Origin: Kitasatospora sp. MMS16-BH015
Lineage (GTDB): Bacteria > Actinomycetota > Actinomycetes > Streptomycetales > Streptomycetaceae
Direction: 5' to 3'
NCBI RefSeq assembly: GCF_002943525.1
Contig: NZ_CP025394.1
Coordinates: forward strand, 5,332,001 to 5,396,000
Length of the DNA: 64,000 nt
Part shown: one piece after another, positions 27,938 to 35,804 of the stretch
How positions within the stretch are numbered: position 1 is the stretch's first letter
Layout: every line of letters begins with the position of its first letter
Notes under the pieces: model-generated
Seen by the model: only the letters and a program-made list of their open reading frames with translations
Told to the model about the DNA's origin: nothing
The model's database searches: none
Made by a program: the position numbers and the translations under genes

Positions 27938-28822
27938 GTGAGCAGCACCTCTGAGAACACCACCGACTCCCACCTCCTCGGCGCCTCGGACATCCGGGAG
28001 CTGGCGGCGGCGCTGGGCGTGAAGCCGACCAAGCAGCGCGGGCAGAACTTCGTCATCGACGGGAACACCGTGCGGCGGATCGTCCGGGCGGGTGGGGTGA
28101 CGGCCGAGGACGCGGTGGTGGAGGTCGGGCCCGGGCTCGGGTCGCTGACGCTGGCGCTGCTGGAGGTGGCCGCGCACGTCACCGCGGTGGAGATCGACCC
28201 GCTGCTGGCGGAGCACCTGCCCGCCACGATCGCGGCCCGGATGCCGGCCAAGGCCGAGCACTTCGACCTGGTCCTCAGCGACGCGATGGAGGTCACCGAG
28301 CTGCCGGGCCCGGCGCCCACCGCGCTGGTGGCGAACCTGCCGTACAACGTGGCCGTCCCGGTGCTGCTGCACATGCTCGCGACCTTCCCGAGCATCGAGC
28401 GCACCCTGGTGATGGTGCAGAGCGAGGTGGCCGACCGCCTGGCCGCCAAGCCCGGCAACAAGGTCTACGGCGTGCCCTCGGTGAAGGCCAACTGGTACGC
28501 CGACGTGAAGCGGGCCGGGGCGATCGGCCGCAACGTGTTCTGGCCCGCGCCGAACGTGGACTCCGGCCTGGTCTCGCTGATCCGCCGCGAGCCGCCGAAG
28601 ACCACCGCCACCCGCACCGAGGTCTTCGCCGTGGTGGACGCCGCCTTCGCCCAGCGCCGCAAGACGCTGCGCGCCGCACTGGCCGGCTGGGCCGGCTCCC
28701 CGGCCGGGGCCGAGGAGGCGCTGGCCGCCGCCGGGATCGACCACAAGCTGCGCGGGGAGATGCTCACCGTCGAGCAGTTCGCCGCGATCGCCGAGCACAA
28801 GCCGAAGGGCCAGGCGCTGTGA
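27938..28822 (+). CDS. rsmA: 16S rRNA (adenine-1518/1519-N6)-dimethyltransferase
   Basis: A 294-residue Rossmann-fold enzyme (KsgA) that dimethylates two adjacent adenines in helix 45 of 16S rRNA late in 30S assembly. Visible motifs are QRGQNFVID, the SAM loop [22 protein letters not shown] and the catalytic [11 protein letters not shown], followed by the C-terminal helical domain ([12 protein letters not shown]). The GTG start is probably leaderless. It overlaps ispE by 4 bp (GTGA), an order conserved in actinobacteria. Confidence 0.95.
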
Positions 28823-29739
28823 GCGTCACCGTGCGGGTGCCCGCCAAGGTCAACGTGCAGCTGGGCGTCGGCGGCCTGCGGGCCGACGGCTTCCACGACC
28901 TGACCAACGTCTTCTTCGCCGTCGCGCTCGGCGACGAGGTGACGGCGGGCCCCGGCACCGAGGGCGTCACCCTCAGCTGCGAGGGCCCCGGCGCCGACCA
29001 GGTGCCGCTGGACGGCCACAACCTGGCCGCGAAGGCGGCCCGCCTGCTGGCCGCCCACCACGGCCTGCCCGAGCCCACCGTGCACCTGCACATCGCCAAG
29101 GCCATCCCGGTGGCCGGCGGCATGGCGGGCGGCAGCGCGGACGGCGCGGCGGCCCTGCTGGCCTGCGACGCGCTCTGGGGCCTCGGCACGCCGCGTCCGG
29201 CCCTGCTCGAGCTGGCCGCCGAGCTCGGCTCCGACGTGCCGTTCGCGCTGTTCGGCGGCGTCGCGCTCGGCCGCGGCCGCGGCGAGCTGCTCGAGGCGCT
29301 GCCGGTCACCGGCACCTTCCACTGGGTCTTCGCGGTGGCCGACGGCGGCCTCTCCACCCCCGCCGTCTTCCGCGAGTGCGACCGCCTCCGCGAGGCCGCC
29401 GGCCTGGGCTCCTCGGACGTGGACTTCCCCACCCCCGAGCTCTCCGCCGCCCTGGTCGACGCCCTGGCCGTCGGCGACCCGAAGGCCCTGGCCACCGCCC
29501 TCACCAACGACCTCCAGCCGCCCGCCGTCTCCCTGCGCCCTTCCCTGCAGGCCACCCTCGACACCGGCCTGGCCGCCGGCGCCCTGGCCGCCCTGGTCTC
29601 CGGCTCCGGCCCCACCTGCGCCTTCCTCGCCCCGGACGCCGCCACGGCCGAGCGCCTGGCCGAAGCCCTCCGTACCTCCGGCACCTGCCGCGACGCCCAC
29701 GCCACCTACGGCCCGGTGCCGGGAGCCACAGTGCTTTAG
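28819..29739 (+). CDS. ispE: 4-diphosphocytidyl-2-C-methyl-D-erythritol kinase
   Basis: A 306-residue GHMP-family kinase of the non-mevalonate isoprenoid pathway; it phosphorylates the 2-hydroxyl of CDP-ME with ATP. Family motifs are [11 protein letters not shown], the ATP-binding [18 protein letters not shown], the substrate loop [12 protein letters not shown] and the late SGSGPTCAF. It starts on a GTG overlapping the rsmA stop. Only 11 bp separate its stop from a dispersed ~147-bp repeat that fills the gap to the ABC-F gene. Confidence 0.94.
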
Positions 29740-29750
29740 TTGCAGCTCCC

Positions 29751-29897
29751 GGGGGCGCGGGGAACGGCGCGGCCAGCCAAGCAGGCTCCGCACTCCTACG
29801 CAGTGACCCACTTGCACGGTCCGTTGACGGTGCAACTGTCTCCCGGCGTGATCTACTACTCCGCTTCTCCCGGCCTCGCGCAGTTCCCCGCGCCCCC
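29751..29897 (+). repeat. Dispersed ~148-bp repeat, copy 1
   Basis: A 147-bp intergenic element bounded by inverted GGGGGCGCGGGGAAC (29751-29765) and GTTCCCCGCGCCCCC (29883-29897). Its reverse complement aligns end to end with 35047-35194, including a CCCACTTGCAC core (29807-29817). No convincing open reading frame. The -35 region of the ABC-F gene may lie in its right end. Confidence 0.8.
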
Positions 29898-29904
29898 GAA
29901 GAAC

Positions 29905-29910
29905 TAGGCT
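29905..29910 (+). promoter_or_regulatory. -10 of the ABC-F gene
   Basis: TAGGCT lies 8 bp beyond the repeat. The transcript would have a ~30-nt leader carrying AGGAG (29934-29938). Confidence 0.4.
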
Positions 29911-29948
29911 GGGCATCCTCACCAGTCGATCCCAGGAGCGCAGCAGCA

Positions 29949-31742
<1,794 letters not shown>

Positions 31743-31763
31743 GTCTGGCAGCCACCCGGGGGA

Positions 31764-33629
31764 TCACCCCAGCAGGACGTCCAGTTCGTTCGCCGCACGG
31801 CCCAGCGCGCTCAGCGCCGGGTCGTGCGGGCTTTCCGGGCGCGCCGCCAGGCCGGTCGGCGGGCGGTGGGCGCGGGCGGCCGCGGTGAGGCGCTCCAGCG
31901 AATCGAGCACCCGGGCCGCCTCGGCGGGGTCGGCGAGCCGGTCGCCGTACCGGATCTGGGCGGCGTAGGCGGCGACGGCGCCGCTGAGCCGTTCGAGGGC
32001 GGCGGTGGCGGGGAGCCACTGTTCGGCCAGGCGGCCGGTGGGCGGGGGTTCGGCCAGGCCGTTGCGGACTTCCTGGCGGGCCTCGGCGAGGGAGCGGTAG
32101 GCGGTGCGGCGCAGCCAGACCTCGGCGGGCGGGGCCGGGCTGCTCCGCACCACCGAGGTGAGGTAGGCGGCGAGGGCGGTGGCGGCGGCCACCAGGAGCG
32201 GTTCGATCCGGTGCCGGGGGCGTTCGGGCCAGAGCAGGTAGCCGAAGACCAGCACGATCACGCTGGCCAGGGTGGTGTCGAGCACCCGGGGCCAGAACTC
32301 GGCGGCCCCGCTCTCGCCGCCGAGCTGCACCAGGATCAGCGCCATCGGCGTCATCACGGCGGTGTTCAGGCCGTAGTGGGCGGCGGCCGAGTACGGCAGC
32401 AGGGCCACGCAGACCGAGGCGGCCAGGGCGAGCACCCAGCGGTCGGTGGTGAGCAGCAGCAGGCCGGCCGTCAGGGCGATCCCGATCAGGGTGCCGACCG
32501 AGCGGCTGACGGCCCGCAGGAAGACCGAGCCGAGGTCGGGCTTGAGCACGAAGGCGACCGTCATGGGCACCCAGTAGCTGCGGCTGAGCGGCAGCCCGGC
32601 GGTGACGGCCTCGGCCACGGCGATGCACAGCGCCACCCGCAGGCCGTACCGGGCCGAGCCCGGGGAGAGCAGCCGCACCCGCAGCCGCCAGGGGTCGGGC
32701 GGCGGGGCGGGGGCGGTGCCGAGGCTGACGGGGCGTCCGGCCACGGCCTCGCCGGCGTCCCGCAGGGCGGCGTCCAGGGCGCGCAGGGCCGGGGTGTCGG
32801 GAGGCCAGCCGGGGTGCGGTGGCGGCGGGTCGCCGAGCAGGGTGCGGCCGAGGGCGGCGGGCAGCACGGCGACCTCGGCCGGCACCGGCCGCCGGGCCCA
32901 GAGCAGGCCGGTGCTGGCCTCGGCCGCGGCGAGCAGGGCCTCGTACTCGGTGCGCAGGGCCGGGCCCCGGCCGAGCAGGTCCTGGGCGGAGTTGAGCCGG
33001 GCGGTGAGCAGCCGGCGGGCCTCGGCGCCCTGCGGGGTGCCGAGGGCGGCGAGGGTCAGGCCGAGCGCCTCGTAGGCGGCGGCCAGGGCGCGGCGGCGCG
33101 GGTCGGCCCGGAGCGAGCGGGGGCGCAGCGGCAGGCCGAGCAGGAAGACGTAGAGCGCGCCCAGCAGCATCATCGGCGGCCCGGCCCACCAGGGGTGGGG
33201 CGAGGGCATGCCGATGCCGAGGGCCGCGGAGACCAGCAGCAGCATCCCGGCGGCGGAGCCGCGCGGGCCGGTGGCGCTGACGGCGCCGGAGAGGAAGGCA
33301 CAGGCCGTCATCGCGCAGGCGGTGAGCAGCACGCCGGTGTGGTGGTGCTGGAGGGTGGCGCCCAGCAGCATGCCGGTGGCCGAGGCGAGCACGGCGCCGG
33401 CGATCCGGGGTGCGCGCAGGGCGGTGGGTTCGATCCGGTCGTTGAGGGTCGCGTGCATCGCGCCGAGCCCGGCGAAGACGCCGAGGTCGAGCCGGCCGGC
33501 CAGCAGGCCGAGCAGCAGCGGGGTGGCCATCCCGAGCGCGGCCCGGGTGATCAGCGCCCACAGCAGCGGCGGGCGCACCGGTCGGGCGGCGTGCGCCCAC
33601 CAGGCGCGCGGGCTGCCGGGGGCTGGCAC
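31764..33629 (-). CDS. FUSC-type membrane protein (aromatic acid exporter-like)
   Basis: A ~621-residue protein with two sets of about five to six hydrophobic helices (from ~30 to 180 and from ~330 to 480), each followed by a long helical cytoplasmic part, the layout of FUSC/YccS/aromatic-acid exporter proteins. SRSYWVPMTVAFVLKPD in the second set is typical. The substrate is unknown; relatives export aromatic acids or relieve envelope stress. GTG 33629 has GGAAGG ~10 nt upstream and fits the divergent MFS gene; a longer frame would overlap that gene. The start is moderately certain. Confidence 0.78.
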   Translation of the reverse strand: MPAPGSPRAWWAHAARPVRPPLLWALITRAALGMATPLLLGLLAGRLDLGVFAGLGAMHATLNDRIEPTALRAPRIAGAVLASATGMLLGATLQHHHTGVLLTACAMTACAFLSGAVSATGPRGSAAGMLLLVSAALGIGMPSPHPWWAGPPMMLLGALYVFLLGLPLRPRSLRADPRRRALAAAYEALGLTLAALGTPQGAEARRLLTARLNSAQDLLGRGPALRTEYEALLAAAEASTGLLWARRPVPAEVAVLPAALGRTLLGDPPPPHPGWPPDTPALRALDAALRDAGEAVAGRPVSLGTAPAPPPDPWRLRVRLLSPGSARYGLRVALCIAVAEAVTAGLPLSRSYWVPMTVAFVLKPDLGSVFLRAVSRSVGTLIGIALTAGLLLLTTDRWVLALAASVCVALLPYSAAAHYGLNTAVMTPMALILVQLGGESGAAEFWPRVLDTTLASVIVLVFGYLLWPERPRHRIEPLLVAAATALAAYLTSVVRSSPAPPAEVWLRRTAYRSLAEARQEVRNGLAEPPPTGRLAEQWLPATAALERLSGAVAAYAAQIRYGDRLADPAEAARVLDSLERLTAAARAHRPPTGLAARPESPHDPALSALGRAANELDVLLG

Positions 33630-33773
33630 GGGGTCGGGCCCTTCCAGGGGTGCTGCTCGGGACGCCGGCAGTCTATCGAGGGTGGCGGGGCGGGGGCGCA
33701 GGCCTGATCGTTCGCTCCCGGACCACCCGTCCGGTGGTGTCGGCGGGGCGGGCCCGGCCAGCAGGGTGGCCCC

Positions 33774-35090
33774 ATGACCACAGACACCCTGCCGGCCGCC
33801 GCAGCCCCGGCCGGCCCCACCCTGCGGCGGGTCGCCACCACGGCCTTCCTGGGCACCGCGATCGAGTACTACGACTTCTTCATCTACGGCACGGCCGCCG
33901 CCCTGGTCTTCGGCCGGGTCTTCTTCCCCGGCCTCGGCGCCTCGGGGGCGCTGCTGGCCGCCTTCTCGGTGTACGCGGTGGCCTTCCTGGCCCGGCCGCT
34001 CGGCGCCGTGCTCTTCGGCCACTTCGGCGACCGGCTGGGCCGCAAGACCACCCTGGTGGTCTCGCTACTGCTGATGGGCCTCTCCACGGTGGCCGTCGGC
34101 CTGCTGCCCGGGTACACCGCCTGGGGCTGGTGGGCGCCGCTGGTACTGCTGCTGCTCCGCGCCTGCCAGGGCATCGGCCTGGGCGGGGAGTGGGGCGGCG
34201 CGGCGCTGCTGCTGGCCGAGCACGCCCCGCCGGGGCAGCGCGGGCGGTACGGCGCGTACCTCCAGCTGGGCCCCTGCGTCGGTTTCGTGCTGGCCACCGG
34301 CGTCTTCCTGGCCCTCTCCGAGGGGCTCGACGAGGCGGCCTTCCTGAGCTGGGGCTGGCGGGTGCCGTTCCTGGCCTCGGCGGCGCTGGTGCTGGTCGGG
34401 CTCTTCGTCCGGCTGCGGATCAAGGAGAGCCGGGTCTTCACCGAGCAGGCGGCCGAGGCGGCGGCCGGGCCGGTGCCGGTGGTCGAGCTGCTGCGGCGGC
34501 ACGGGCGGGTGGTGCTGCTCGGGGGCTGCGCCACCATGATCGGGTACGCCCTCTTCTACCTGACCACCACCTTCTCGCTGGCCTACGCGACCACCCAGCT
34601 CGGCATCTCCCGGGGCCTGGTGCTCGGGCTGCTGCTGGTCGGCGCGGTGGGCAAGGGCCTGGCGGCCTGGTGGACGGCCGGGCGCAGCGACCGGTGGGGG
34701 CGGCGGCGGATGCTCCAGGGCGCGGCGGCGCTGGCGGCAGGGTGGTCGCTGGTCTTCTTCCCGATGTTGGAGAGCGGGAGGACGGCGTACGTGGCGCTGG
34801 CGTTGTGCGGGGGGATGGTGGTGCTGGGCTGTCTGTTCGGGCCGGTGGCGGCCTTCCTGCCGGAGCTCTTCCCGACGGCCGTCCGCTACTCGGGCGCGGC
34901 CCTCACGTACAACATCGGGGGCGTGCTGGGCGGGGCGACGGCCCCGATCGTCGCGAGCCGGCTGACGGCGGTGTACGGGACGGCGGAGCCGGTGGGGTGG
35001 TACTTGGCGGGGATGGGAGTTGTTTCGGTGCTCTGTCTGGCATTCAGGGGCGCGGGGAACTGCGCGAAGTCGGAAGCGGCGGTGCTGTGA
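33774..35090 (+). CDS. MFS transporter, metabolite:H+ symporter (MHS) family
   Basis: A 438-residue 12-helix transporter. The first helix has GTAIEYYDFFIYGTAA and the loop GHFGDRLGRKTTL, diagnostic of the MHS branch (shikimate, proline/betaine or dicarboxylate symporters); the exact substrate is unclear. ATG 33774 is divergent from the FUSC gene. The last 14 codons (from 35046) lie in copy 2 of a dispersed ~148-bp repeat, so the tail RGAGNCAKSEAAVL is repeat-derived and probably replaces the original C-terminus. Confidence 0.88.
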   Translation: MTTDTLPAAAAPAGPTLRRVATTAFLGTAIEYYDFFIYGTAAALVFGRVFFPGLGASGALLAAFSVYAVAFLARPLGAVLFGHFGDRLGRKTTLVVSLLLMGLSTVAVGLLPGYTAWGWWAPLVLLLLRACQGIGLGGEWGGAALLLAEHAPPGQRGRYGAYLQLGPCVGFVLATGVFLALSEGLDEAAFLSWGWRVPFLASAALVLVGLFVRLRIKESRVFTEQAAEAAAGPVPVVELLRRHGRVVLLGGCATMIGYALFYLTTTFSLAYATTQLGISRGLVLGLLLVGAVGKGLAAWWTAGRSDRWGRRRMLQGAAALAAGWSLVFFPMLESGRTAYVALALCGGMVVLGCLFGPVAAFLPELFPTAVRYSGAALTYNIGGVLGGATAPIVASRLTAVYGTAEPVGWYLAGMGVVSVLCLAFRGAGNCAKSEAAVL

Positions 35091-35194
35091 GCGCAGCTCG
35101 GGAGCCAGTGGCACCCGCAACGGACAGTGCAAGTGGGCCACTTCGTAAAGCAGGCGGGCCGTGCATGCTTGGCCGCGCCGTTCCCCGCGCCCCC
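35047..35194 (-). repeat. Dispersed ~148-bp repeat, copy 2 (inverted)
   Basis: A 148-bp element bounded by GGGGCGCGGGGAAC (35047-35060) and GTTCCCCGCGCCCCC (35180-35194); its reverse complement matches copy 1 (29751-29897) over its length, with the core at 35127-35137. It sits between convergent genes and encodes the MFS C-terminus. The termini resemble a GGGGCGCGGGGAAC word I recall as frequent between Streptomyces genes. Confidence 0.8.
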
Positions 35195-35204
35195 AAACAG
35201 ATGA

Positions 35205-35804
35205 TCACGCCCCGGAAATAACCTTCCGGCCCGCCAGCACGATCCGGGTCTGCTCGGTGAGGCGCTGGCCGAGGTGCTCCGCGGTGGCGATGTCGGCCTT
35301 GTGGACGGTGGCGGCGTCGCCGTCGACGGGGGTCTGGGCGGCGGCGCCGCCGAAGTAGCCGAGGCGGTTGAGGTCGTACTCGGAGGCGGTGCTGGCGTTC
35401 CAGCCGGGGTGCAGGCCGAGGTTGACCCAGGTCATGCCGTGCTGGGCGGCGAGCACCTGGAACCAGGCCAGGGTGGAGCTCTTGTCGCCGGCCTTGGAGC
35501 CGGAGTTGGTGAAGCCGGCGGCGAGCTTGTCGCCCCAAGCGCTGGTGAACCAGCGCTTGCTGCTGGCCTCGCCGAAGGCGTGGAAGGCGGCGGAGGCGGT
35601 GCCCATGTAGGTGGGGGAGCCGAAGACGATCGCGTCGGCGGCGTCCAGCTGGGCCCACTGCTCCTCGGTGATGGTGTCGACCGCGATCAGCACGGCCTCG
35701 CCACCGGCGGCGGCGATGCCCCGGGCGACGGCCTCGGCGAGCACGGCGGTGTGGCCGTAACCGGAGTGGTGGGCGATGGCGACGGTGGGGCGGATCTCGG
35801 TCAT
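35205..35804 (-). CDS. Flavodoxin-like NAD(P)H:quinone oxidoreductase
   Basis: A 199-residue flavodoxin-fold protein. The FMN-phosphate loop is HHSGYGHTAVLAEAV (near 12-26), followed by FGSPTYMGTASAAFHAF, the WrbA-like isoalloxazine loop, and a second loop with FTNSGSKAGDK. It probably reduces quinones or other electrophiles by two electrons with FMN and NAD(P)H in the cytosol. It is divergent from an HxlR regulator, a pairing typical of quinone or electrophile sensing. The start overlaps a region of inverted repeats between the two genes. Confidence 0.87.
   Translation of the reverse strand: MTEIRPTVAIAHHSGYGHTAVLAEAVARGIAAAGGEAVLIAVDTITEEQWAQLDAADAIVFGSPTYMGTASAAFHAFGEASSKRWFTSAWGDKLAAGFTNSGSKAGDKSSTLAWFQVLAAQHGMTWVNLGLHPGWNASTASEYDLNRLGYFGGAAAQTPVDGDAATVHKADIATAEHLGQRLTEQTRIVLAGRKVISGA

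What the first reader, a model, noticed from the sequence alone, without database searches (positions are those of the whole stretch)
29751..35194. Two opposite-facing copies of a ~148-bp repeat with GGGGCGCGGGGAAC ends
Seen: 29751-29897 and the reverse complement of 35047-35194 align end to end, sharing both terminal inverted motifs and an inner CCCACTTGCAC core. Both are intergenic next to stop codons. They differ in length by one base and have many substitutions, so they are old or independently acquired. Inference: a nonautonomous mobile or RNA-hairpin element spread between genes; I recall its terminal word as common in Streptomyces.
Basis: partly seen in the sequence, partly recalled or inferred. 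Interest (0 to 1): 0.6.

Follow-up and report, generated by a model that had tools for sequence, protein, structure and literature searches.

The report
Dispersed palindromic repeats ending Streptomycetaceae genes
The two opposite-facing repeats are two of probably more than a hundred copies, in this genome, of a hairpin-forming DNA repeat that sits right behind the ends of genes and is found in many genomes of the Streptomyces family, apparently where other relatives have ordinary transcription stop signals.

Summary
The copies (29752-29896 and, reversed, 35047-35193) match at 117 of 148 columns, far above shuffles. Their terminal 14-mer occurs 313 times in the host genome, against 4 for its reversed-letter control; the 20-mer end occurs in 115 of 200 family genomes, 0 to 471 times each. 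In 1.31 Mb I found 63 paired palindromes, mostly about 70, 75, 92-104 or 142-150 bp. In 38 long copies the 20-bp arms are almost invariant while the interior diverges.

They sit just behind stop codons: in two contiguous stretches (996 kb) at 18/137 convergent, 12/521 tandem, 0/138 divergent gene pairs. At one such site 10 of 11 relatives have a strong unrelated hairpin, the other a variant repeat. Five of seven identical IS30-family insertions lie inside the repeat's arm.

Best reading: a REP/BIME-like mosaic of polar units forming bidirectional 3'-end hairpins, probably terminators, that replaced native ones. Not a classical REP (no GTAG/CGTC foot, no intact Y1 transposase); no MITE-like target duplication. 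Mobility and termination are inferred. My ten paper searches showed no description.

The parts
29752..29896 (.). Copy 1 of the long class (145 bp), G-type arm on the left; folds strongly on both strands
29752..29771 (+). left 20-bp arm GGGGCGCGGGGAACGGCGCG
29877..29896 (-). right 20-bp arm, reads GGGGCGCGGGGAACTGCGCG on the - strand
29812..29835 (.). central inner palindrome TTGCAC...GTGCAA of copy 1
35047..35193 (.). Copy 2 of the long class (147 bp), opposite orientation
35047..35066 (+). T-type 20-bp arm GGGGCGCGGGGAACTGCGCG of copy 2
35174..35193 (-). G-type 20-bp arm of copy 2 (reads GGGGCGCGGGGAACGGCGCG on the - strand)
35109..35132 (.). central inner palindrome of copy 2 (TGGCAC...GTGCAA, one mismatch)
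28819..29739 (+). ispE (CDP-ME kinase); its stop lies 12 nt before copy 1
   Evidence: NF002870, E 6.4e-122, above its cut-off
29949..31742 (+). ABC-F-like ATPase gene downstream of copy 1, same direction
   Evidence: ABC_tran over its cut-off; the best NCBIfam models stay below theirs
33774..35090 (+). MFS transporter-like gene; ORF ends inside copy 2 (last 44 nt)
   Evidence: MFS_1 over its cut-off
35205..35804 (-). flavodoxin / FMN-reductase-like gene converging on copy 2; stop 11 nt from it
   Evidence: FMN_red over its cut-off; NCBIfam models below theirs

Best explanation
The repeat belongs to a REP/BIME-like family of dispersed palindromes in Streptomycetaceae. The unit is polar: a head GGGGCGCGGGGAAC(T/G)GCGCG followed by an arm. 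It occurs singly, in tandem and as inverted pairs; in this genome inverted pairs that make one long hairpin are common. A second palindrome (TTGCAC...GTGCAA) lies in the middle of the long class and its half-word also flanks some copies. Shown: abundance, patchy spread, near-invariant arms, position right behind stop codons, preference for convergent pairs, absence from the 138 divergent pairs examined, and, at orthologous sites of relatives, often an unrelated strong hairpin. Inferred: in RNA the stem forms as the polymerase leaves the gene and stops or blocks it from either side (bidirectional terminator or 3'-end barrier), so that a copy can stand in for a native terminator without harm, which would explain where copies are found. 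Inferred and unproven: copies spread by insertion at 3' ends, perhaps into hairpins, without target duplication, by an unknown enzyme. Shown: an IS30-family element of this genome has used the arm as its landing site.
For: Copies: 313 terminal 14-mers versus 4 for the control; 115 of 200 family genomes hold the 20-mer, control zero in all 200. Of 36 other genus members 12 have no exact 14-mer, 12 have 1-9, 12 have 10 or more, up to 311. Place: 18/137 convergent, 12/521 tandem, 0/138 divergent pairs in 996 kb (Fisher p 9e-8 for convergent versus the rest, 0.005 for divergent versus the rest); 0 of 63 paired copies flagged inside a predicted gene. Beside the copy, residual intergenic DNA is 17.5 nt (median of 18), with a stem of 9 bp or more in 0 of 18 convergent pairs with the repeat versus 35 of 112 without (7 pairs with gaps over 450 nt left out). 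Orthologs of the copy at 2872121: in 10 of 11 relatives an unrelated hairpin stronger than all 400 coding controls, in G014 a repeat-like variant (13 of 400 controls as strong in 50-nt windows). Of 7 sites comparable with G031, 4 have a hairpin matched by at most 1 of 400 controls, 1 holds a variant of the repeat itself, 2 have neither. Covariation: in 50 distinct palindromes of other genus members pair 15 is T-A 30, G-C 9, C-G 4, other 7; pairs 6 and 13 also change on both sides. Polar unit: 156 of 179 hits in named loci have no inverted partner within 300 nt; in 400 kb of G099 neighbouring units are back to back 19, same direction 15, face to face 7. IS30: 5 of 7 identical copies in the arm.
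Against: No expression, termination or mobility data. The copies lack a T-run at their ends in this genome, so they are not classical U-tract terminators. In the long class no pair shows a compensatory change, and in this genome pair 15 is mismatched in 28 of 70 palindromes as G/A or T/C. 2 of 7 G031 sites have neither hairpin nor repeat, so not every copy replaced one. The stem comparison of pairs with and without the repeat is partly a length effect, since little sequence is left beside it. No clean empty site in a very close relative was found, so the exact inserted unit is unknown. Of 3 further loci tested in close relatives, several relatives share the copy or a remnant, which fits inheritance as well as movement.
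Confidence: 0.62

Rival explanations
1. A MITE: a non-autonomous DNA transposon with terminal inverted repeats, moved by a DDE transposase supplied in trans; survival bias alone leaves it behind genes.
For: Sharp inverted ends GGGG...CCCC, high copy number, patchy spread, presence or absence at orthologous sites.
Against: At the ends of 59 copies no duplication of 4 or more bases (1 of 59 with 3). Over all shifted boundaries tried the largest excess was 5 observed versus 1.1 expected 3-mers and 3 versus 0.26 4-mers, among many positions. Five long-spaced end pairs in 120 named loci held ordinary genes as read by eye, no domain search. Arms almost invariant while interiors are about 68% alike; copies were mostly found by their arms, so this is biased.
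Confidence: 0.13
2. Ordinary vertically inherited terminators whose sequences are kept alike by gene conversion between copies; nothing moves.
For: Position and hairpin shape are those of terminators; arms are homogeneous; at the L365 locus G015 and G078 share the repeat and G071 keeps a centre-deleted remnant; at one of 7 sites G031 has a variant of the repeat.
Against: Exact-word counts swing from 0 to hundreds within one genus; at several orthologous sites relatives have unrelated hairpins. Gene conversion could hardly replace an unrelated hairpin unless it is itself a transfer of the repeat.
Confidence: 0.2
3. A classical REP/REPIN spread by a RAYT (Y1 HUH transposase).
For: Works alike: polar units, inverted doublets, 3' ends, convergent pairs, target of an insertion sequence (PMC3733652 and PMC1525189, passages).
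Against: The host holds only a partial Y1 match (profile positions 32-89 of 121) near a chromosome end; 29 of 70 genus members have a match over the cut-off, and G013 and G014 (114 and 116 terminal words) have none. Over the 37 genus members counted in both calls copy number and Y1 matches do not correlate (Spearman 0.07, p 0.68). No GTAG or CGTC foot in the flank consensus. Far longer than 20-40 bp.
Confidence: 0.05
4. A family of small regulatory RNAs rather than a DNA repeat or terminator.
For: Strong folding: z -5.4 and -5.6 for the two strands of copy 1, -4.3 for the - strand of copy 2.
Against: No Rfam match in the 7 kb searched apart from one weak hit elsewhere, below its gathering score. 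Interior diverges and size class varies; copies abut stop codons and leave little room for a promoter. Processed 3' UTR fragments are not excluded.
Confidence: 0.06

Closest known systems
REP / REPIN / BIME repeats (GTAG and CGTC superfamilies)
   Same: High copy, extragenic, hairpin-forming, polar units in singles, tandems and inverted doublets; next to stop codons between convergent or co-directional genes; target of insertion sequences (PMC3733652 and PMC1525189: passages seen; PMC3116915: abstract seen)
   Different: No GTAG/CGTC foot, no intact Y1 transposase in the host, 20-bp GC-rich arm, palindromes of 70-150 bp with a second palindrome inside the long class. The words Streptomyces and Actinobacteria do not occur in the main text of PMC3733652
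MITEs
   Same: Short, inverted ends, no coding capacity, dispersed
   Different: No target duplication, no autonomous relative found in the little that was searched
Intrinsic or bidirectional terminators of Streptomyces
   Same: GC-rich palindrome just behind stop codons; in S. avermitilis a GC-rich palindrome upstream of transcript ends was reported, with no general poly-U but a U-rich motif in about 25% of ends (PMC8780764, passages seen)
   Different: One sequence family repeated up to hundreds of times, where native sites differ from each other
REP-targeting insertion sequences
   Same: An IS with one fixed insertion point inside the repeat
   Different: PMC1525189 names the families IS3, IS110, IS4, IS256 and IS5 (passages seen); here it is IS30 family (NF033563, E 2.9e-87)

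Membership tests
REP/REPIN | tens to hundreds of extragenic copies | tested here: met
REP/REPIN | hairpin-forming polar unit in singlets and inverted doublets | tested here: met
REP/REPIN | GTAG or CGTC tetranucleotide at the foot | tested here: not met
   flank consensus before GGGG is roughly YCA or YCG, 118 ends
REP/REPIN | cognate RAYT (Y1) gene in the genome | tested here: not met
   only a partial match in G000; none in G013, G014; no correlation with copy number
REP/REPIN | excision or circular intermediates | not testable with these tools
   needs reads
MITE | terminal inverted repeats | tested here: met
MITE | target-site duplication | tested here: not met
   0 of 59 with 4 or more bases at the ends; shifted boundaries
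MITE | autonomous transposon with the same ends | tested here: inconclusive
   5 spaced pairs in 120 named loci held ordinary genes by eye; no whole-family search
Intrinsic terminator | strong hairpin directly behind the stop codon | tested here: met
Intrinsic terminator | U-tract after the stem | tested here: not met
   flanks; in G099 T-runs lie between back-to-back units
Intrinsic terminator | stops transcription | not testable with these tools
   no RNA data
Rfam RNA family | match to a described family | tested here: not met

The most novel reading that the evidence does not exclude
A self-spreading terminator: a palindromic unit that inserts into, and then supplants, the terminator hairpins of its host, so that in some species a good share of convergent gene pairs end in one shared, mobile stop signal. 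The nested palindromes (a second palindrome inside the long class and its half-words outside some copies; a mini-repeat in the loop of a native hairpin in G081) would record successive insertions into hairpin loops by an enzyme not yet known.
Probability: 0.25. Interest if true: 0.8.

Novelty: new variant of a known kind. Interest (0 to 1): 0.6.

Why it matters
If right, a repeat spread through much of one of the best studied antibiotic-producing families has been shaping where genes end, with terminal-word counts from none to 471 in related genomes. It gives a natural experiment on terminator turnover: orthologous gene pairs with and without the same hairpin. It also supplies a landing site for an IS30-family element and a source of recombination between distant loci, of use to anyone engineering these genomes.

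Tried and rejected
Target duplications: none convincing. RAYT: no intact gene in the host, no correlation. Autonomous copies: long-spaced end pairs held ordinary genes; in the host such a pair holds an IS30 inserted in the repeat, not bounded by the repeat's own outer ends. General palindromy of flanks: matched flanks scored 5.66 against 5.37 for mismatched ones, 443 of 5000 permutations as good, so the idea that every copy sits in an outer palindrome was dropped; only some do (7 of 62 at score 9 or more, against 5.4% of mismatched pairs). Flank words AGTTGCAC.., CTGGGGCG....AACCACCA recur but their part in the inserted unit is unsettled. The strict core pattern of the long class matched no record in genome contigs (host records may be hidden there); looser cores exist in copies of G030 and G019. 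A one-strand look of G099 in the listing vanished when the DNA was read: a listing effect. A perfect stem of 9 bp in G031 gave only 2 of 7 sites, the energy test 4 of 7. In one search the relatives of 2872121 were folded in 60-nt and the controls in 50-nt windows; one search repeated this with equal windows: 10 of 11 still beat all controls (400), G014 did not (13 of 400). rest on a home-made codon-usage gene caller; one search filed window copy 2 as tandem because the MFS ORF overlaps it, it is convergent. Of the two stretches, one was picked because the listing showed many copies there, the other because it surrounds the window. Alignment A2 had seven copies in the wrong orientation and was redone as A3. 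A3 leaves out two odd long copies of the arm-found set (2459829, 5643794), two BLAST hits lacking part of the left end, and BLAST hits for which no locus was fetched.
Full report
Observation. Copy 1 (29752-29896) and the reverse complement of copy 2 (35047-35193) align over their whole length, 117 identities in 148 columns. The local score is 142 against at most 33 in 1000 dinucleotide shuffles, and the interior without the arms still scores 67 against at most 33. Copy 1 folds strongly on both strands (z -5.4, -5.6) and copy 2 on the - strand (z -4.3; its + strand was not folded). Copy 1 follows the ispE stop by 12 nt (NF002870). Copy 2 lies between an MFS-like gene, whose ORF ends 44 nt inside it, and a convergent flavodoxin/FMN-reductase-like gene 11 nt away.

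Copies in the genome. The 14-mer GGGGCGCGGGGAAC occurs 155 + 158 times in the 8.96-Mb host chromosome, the reversed-letter control 3 + 1 times. A BLAST search with one long copy scored 40 of 262 first-look candidates; all 40 places matched, 38 over the full length, both window copies among them. In 1.31 Mb read directly (28 pieces, many chosen because they hold copies) I found 63 inverted pairs and 87 unpaired hits; of the unpaired, 36 had at most 2 mismatches in 20 and 42 had 4, the latter probably mostly chance. Pair lengths cluster near 70, 75, 92-104 and 142-150 bp.

Anatomy. A3 aligns 38 oriented long copies: 23 first found by their ends and 15 by whole-element BLAST; two odd copies, two truncated BLAST hits and BLAST hits without a locus were left out. 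The outer 20 bp of each side show 3 substitutions in 1482 sites, column 15 left out (34 G, 4 T), while 22% of interior cells differ from the majority. Median identity between interiors of two copies is 68% (long, 24 copies), 70% (70-bp class, 17) and 64% (75-bp class, 11), copies all found by their arms. The middle of the long class is a second palindrome TTGCAC...GTGCAA; its half-word also flanks some copies on the outside. Of 25 long copies, 22 carry G on one arm and T on the other at position 15, two T on both, one T and C; the two arms continue like the 70-bp and the 75-bp class (by eye), so the long class looks composite. In the long class no pair shows a compensatory change. Among 50 distinct palindromes of other genus members pair 15 is T-A 30, G-C 9, C-G 4, other 7; pair 6 G-C 43, T-A 3, other 4; pair 13 A-T 46, G-C 2, other 2, which favours a kept stem; some of these copies are orthologs of each other.

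Polar unit. Of 179 usable hits in them 156 had no inverted partner within 300 nt: head GGGGCGCGGGGAACTGCGCGACCAGCC, then CGGCCCGCAGCCG-like sequence; some stand in tandem. In 400 kb of G099, another genus of the family (20 pieces, several chosen for listed hits), neighbouring hits within 260 bp are back to back 19 times, same direction 15, face to face 7. Between back-to-back ones often lie hairpins with T-runs such as GCCCTCTCAGCGAGAGGGTGAGCGTTTTT. So the unit is polar and forms doublets both ways, as REPs do.

Distribution. In 36 other members of the genus exact 14-mer counts are 0 in 12, 1-9 in 12 and 10 or more in 12, up to 311; among 24 genomes outside the genus 6 have a single hit and 18 none. 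With the 20-mer, 115 of 200 family genomes (9 of 17 genera, host included) have matches, up to 471, and the control has none in any. Exact words miss diverged copies, so zero means no exact word.

Place. With a home-made gene caller 62 of the 63 paired copies could be placed: 35 convergent, 26 tandem, 1 divergent; 0 of 63 were flagged inside a gene. In tandem pairs the copy mostly hugs the stop of the upstream gene. One of the 26 tandem calls is wrong (window copy 2 is convergent). In two contiguous stretches, together 996 kb (2.6-3.0 Mb, picked as rich in copies, and 5.2-5.8 Mb around the window), 18 of 137 convergent, 12 of 521 tandem and 0 of 138 divergent pairs carry a copy (Fisher p 9e-8 and 0.005). 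In named genomes 80 of 179 hits were convergent, 60 tandem, 17 divergent, 20 at edges, 2 inside; in G099 21 convergent, 46 tandem, 0 divergent, 1 inside of 68.

What relatives have there. For the copy at 2872121, 10 of 11 relatives searched have, between the same two genes, an unrelated hairpin stronger than all 400 coding controls in equal windows; G014 has a variant of the repeat, GGGGCGCGGGGCGCCGCGCG..., with 13 of 400 controls as strong. Of 7 copies whose two neighbours are adjacent in G031 too, 4 have such a hairpin there (at most 1 of 400 controls as strong), one (2886641) has a variant of the repeat with GGGGCTCGGGGAAC / GTTCCCCGAGCCCC arms, two have neither. At the ispE site none of 29 loci of relatives shows the terminal word within 2 mismatches near the gap; three distant or chance-like words in two loci are elsewhere (one locus, L098, gave no ispE match). 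Three more loci in close relatives: at L365 G015 and G078 have the repeat, G071 a centre-deleted remnant, G092 and G081 other hairpins (G081 with a mini-repeat CAGGGGCGCGGCCCCTG in the loop), G069 neither clearly. At L364 G071, G078, G015 and G069 have it, in G015 and G069 broken by another hairpin, and G092 has another hairpin; G081 has a different arrangement. At L363 G002 has it, G030 and G085 have decayed pieces, G024 and G009 none. Beside copies between convergent genes the remaining intergenic DNA is 17.5 nt (median), with a stem of 9 bp or more in 0 of 18, against 35 of 112 pairs without a copy. This fits replacement, though the short remainder itself limits what could be found.

Mobility. 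No convincing target duplication (59 copies), no intact Y1 transposase in the host and no correlation of Y1 with copy number over 37 genomes, no transposase recognised between long-spaced ends in five named loci (by eye). The mover, if any, is unknown.

Insertion sequence. Seven identical copies of a 411-aa IS30-family transposase gene (NF033563, E 2.9e-87) and one distant relative (45%) are in the host. Five of the seven lie inside an arm at GGGGAACTG^C, a sixth between two same-direction terminal words (one with a mismatch), one elsewhere. With an assumed 0.3% of the genome as repeat, 5 of 7 has p about 5e-12. PMC1525189 lists five REP-targeting IS families, IS30 not among them (passages).

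Literature. Six strings of the arm occur in none of the papers held; searches on Streptomyces repeats, REP, MITE, terminators, IS targets and Kitasatospora gave no description of this family in the listed titles and abstract starts. Seen: passages of PMC8780764, PMC8269248, PMC3765725, PMC3733652 and PMC1525189 and abstract and outline of PMC3116915. Only open papers are held, so a description elsewhere is possible.

Verdict. A real, abundant, REP-like repeat family; a 3'-end hairpin role is likely, termination and mobility are not shown.

Noticed in passing
L296, L297, L298, L299, L300 (own genome; IS30 copies at 2756377, 3535466, 5223564, 5718762, 6674031): IS30-family element inserted at one fixed point of the repeat arm; all seven copies in the genome are identical in protein, so probably recent.
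   Followed up: yes
L296 and L298, right of the IS30: In two of the IS-bearing copies the far arm is broken by about 13 extra bases ending in GGGG between GCAGT and CCCCGCGCCCC; unexplained.
   Followed up: no
L376 and L377 (G015, G069): Another short hairpin, TCCCCCAGCCTTCGGCCGGGAGGTGCCCCCA-like, sits inside the arm of the repeat: repeat within repeat.
   Followed up: no
L177 (Streptomyces aureoverticillatus, 115-bp copy): The repeat arms bracket what looks like an ordinary bidirectional terminator hairpin with flanking A and T runs.
   Followed up: no
L388 (G081): Mini-hairpin CAGGGGCGCGGCCCCTG in the loop of a terminator-like hairpin at an orthologous site.
   Followed up: partly
G031 between the orthologs of the genes flanking own 2886641: A variant long copy with GGGGCTCGGGGAAC arms at the same site: either inherited or an independent arrival.
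   Followed up: partly
window 35047-35090: The MFS ORF takes about its last 14 codons and its stop from the repeat, so the repeat seems to have altered a protein C-terminus.
   Followed up: no
L190, L185, L203 and L416: Head-to-tail arrays of the unit with periods of about 70-126 bp.
   Followed up: no
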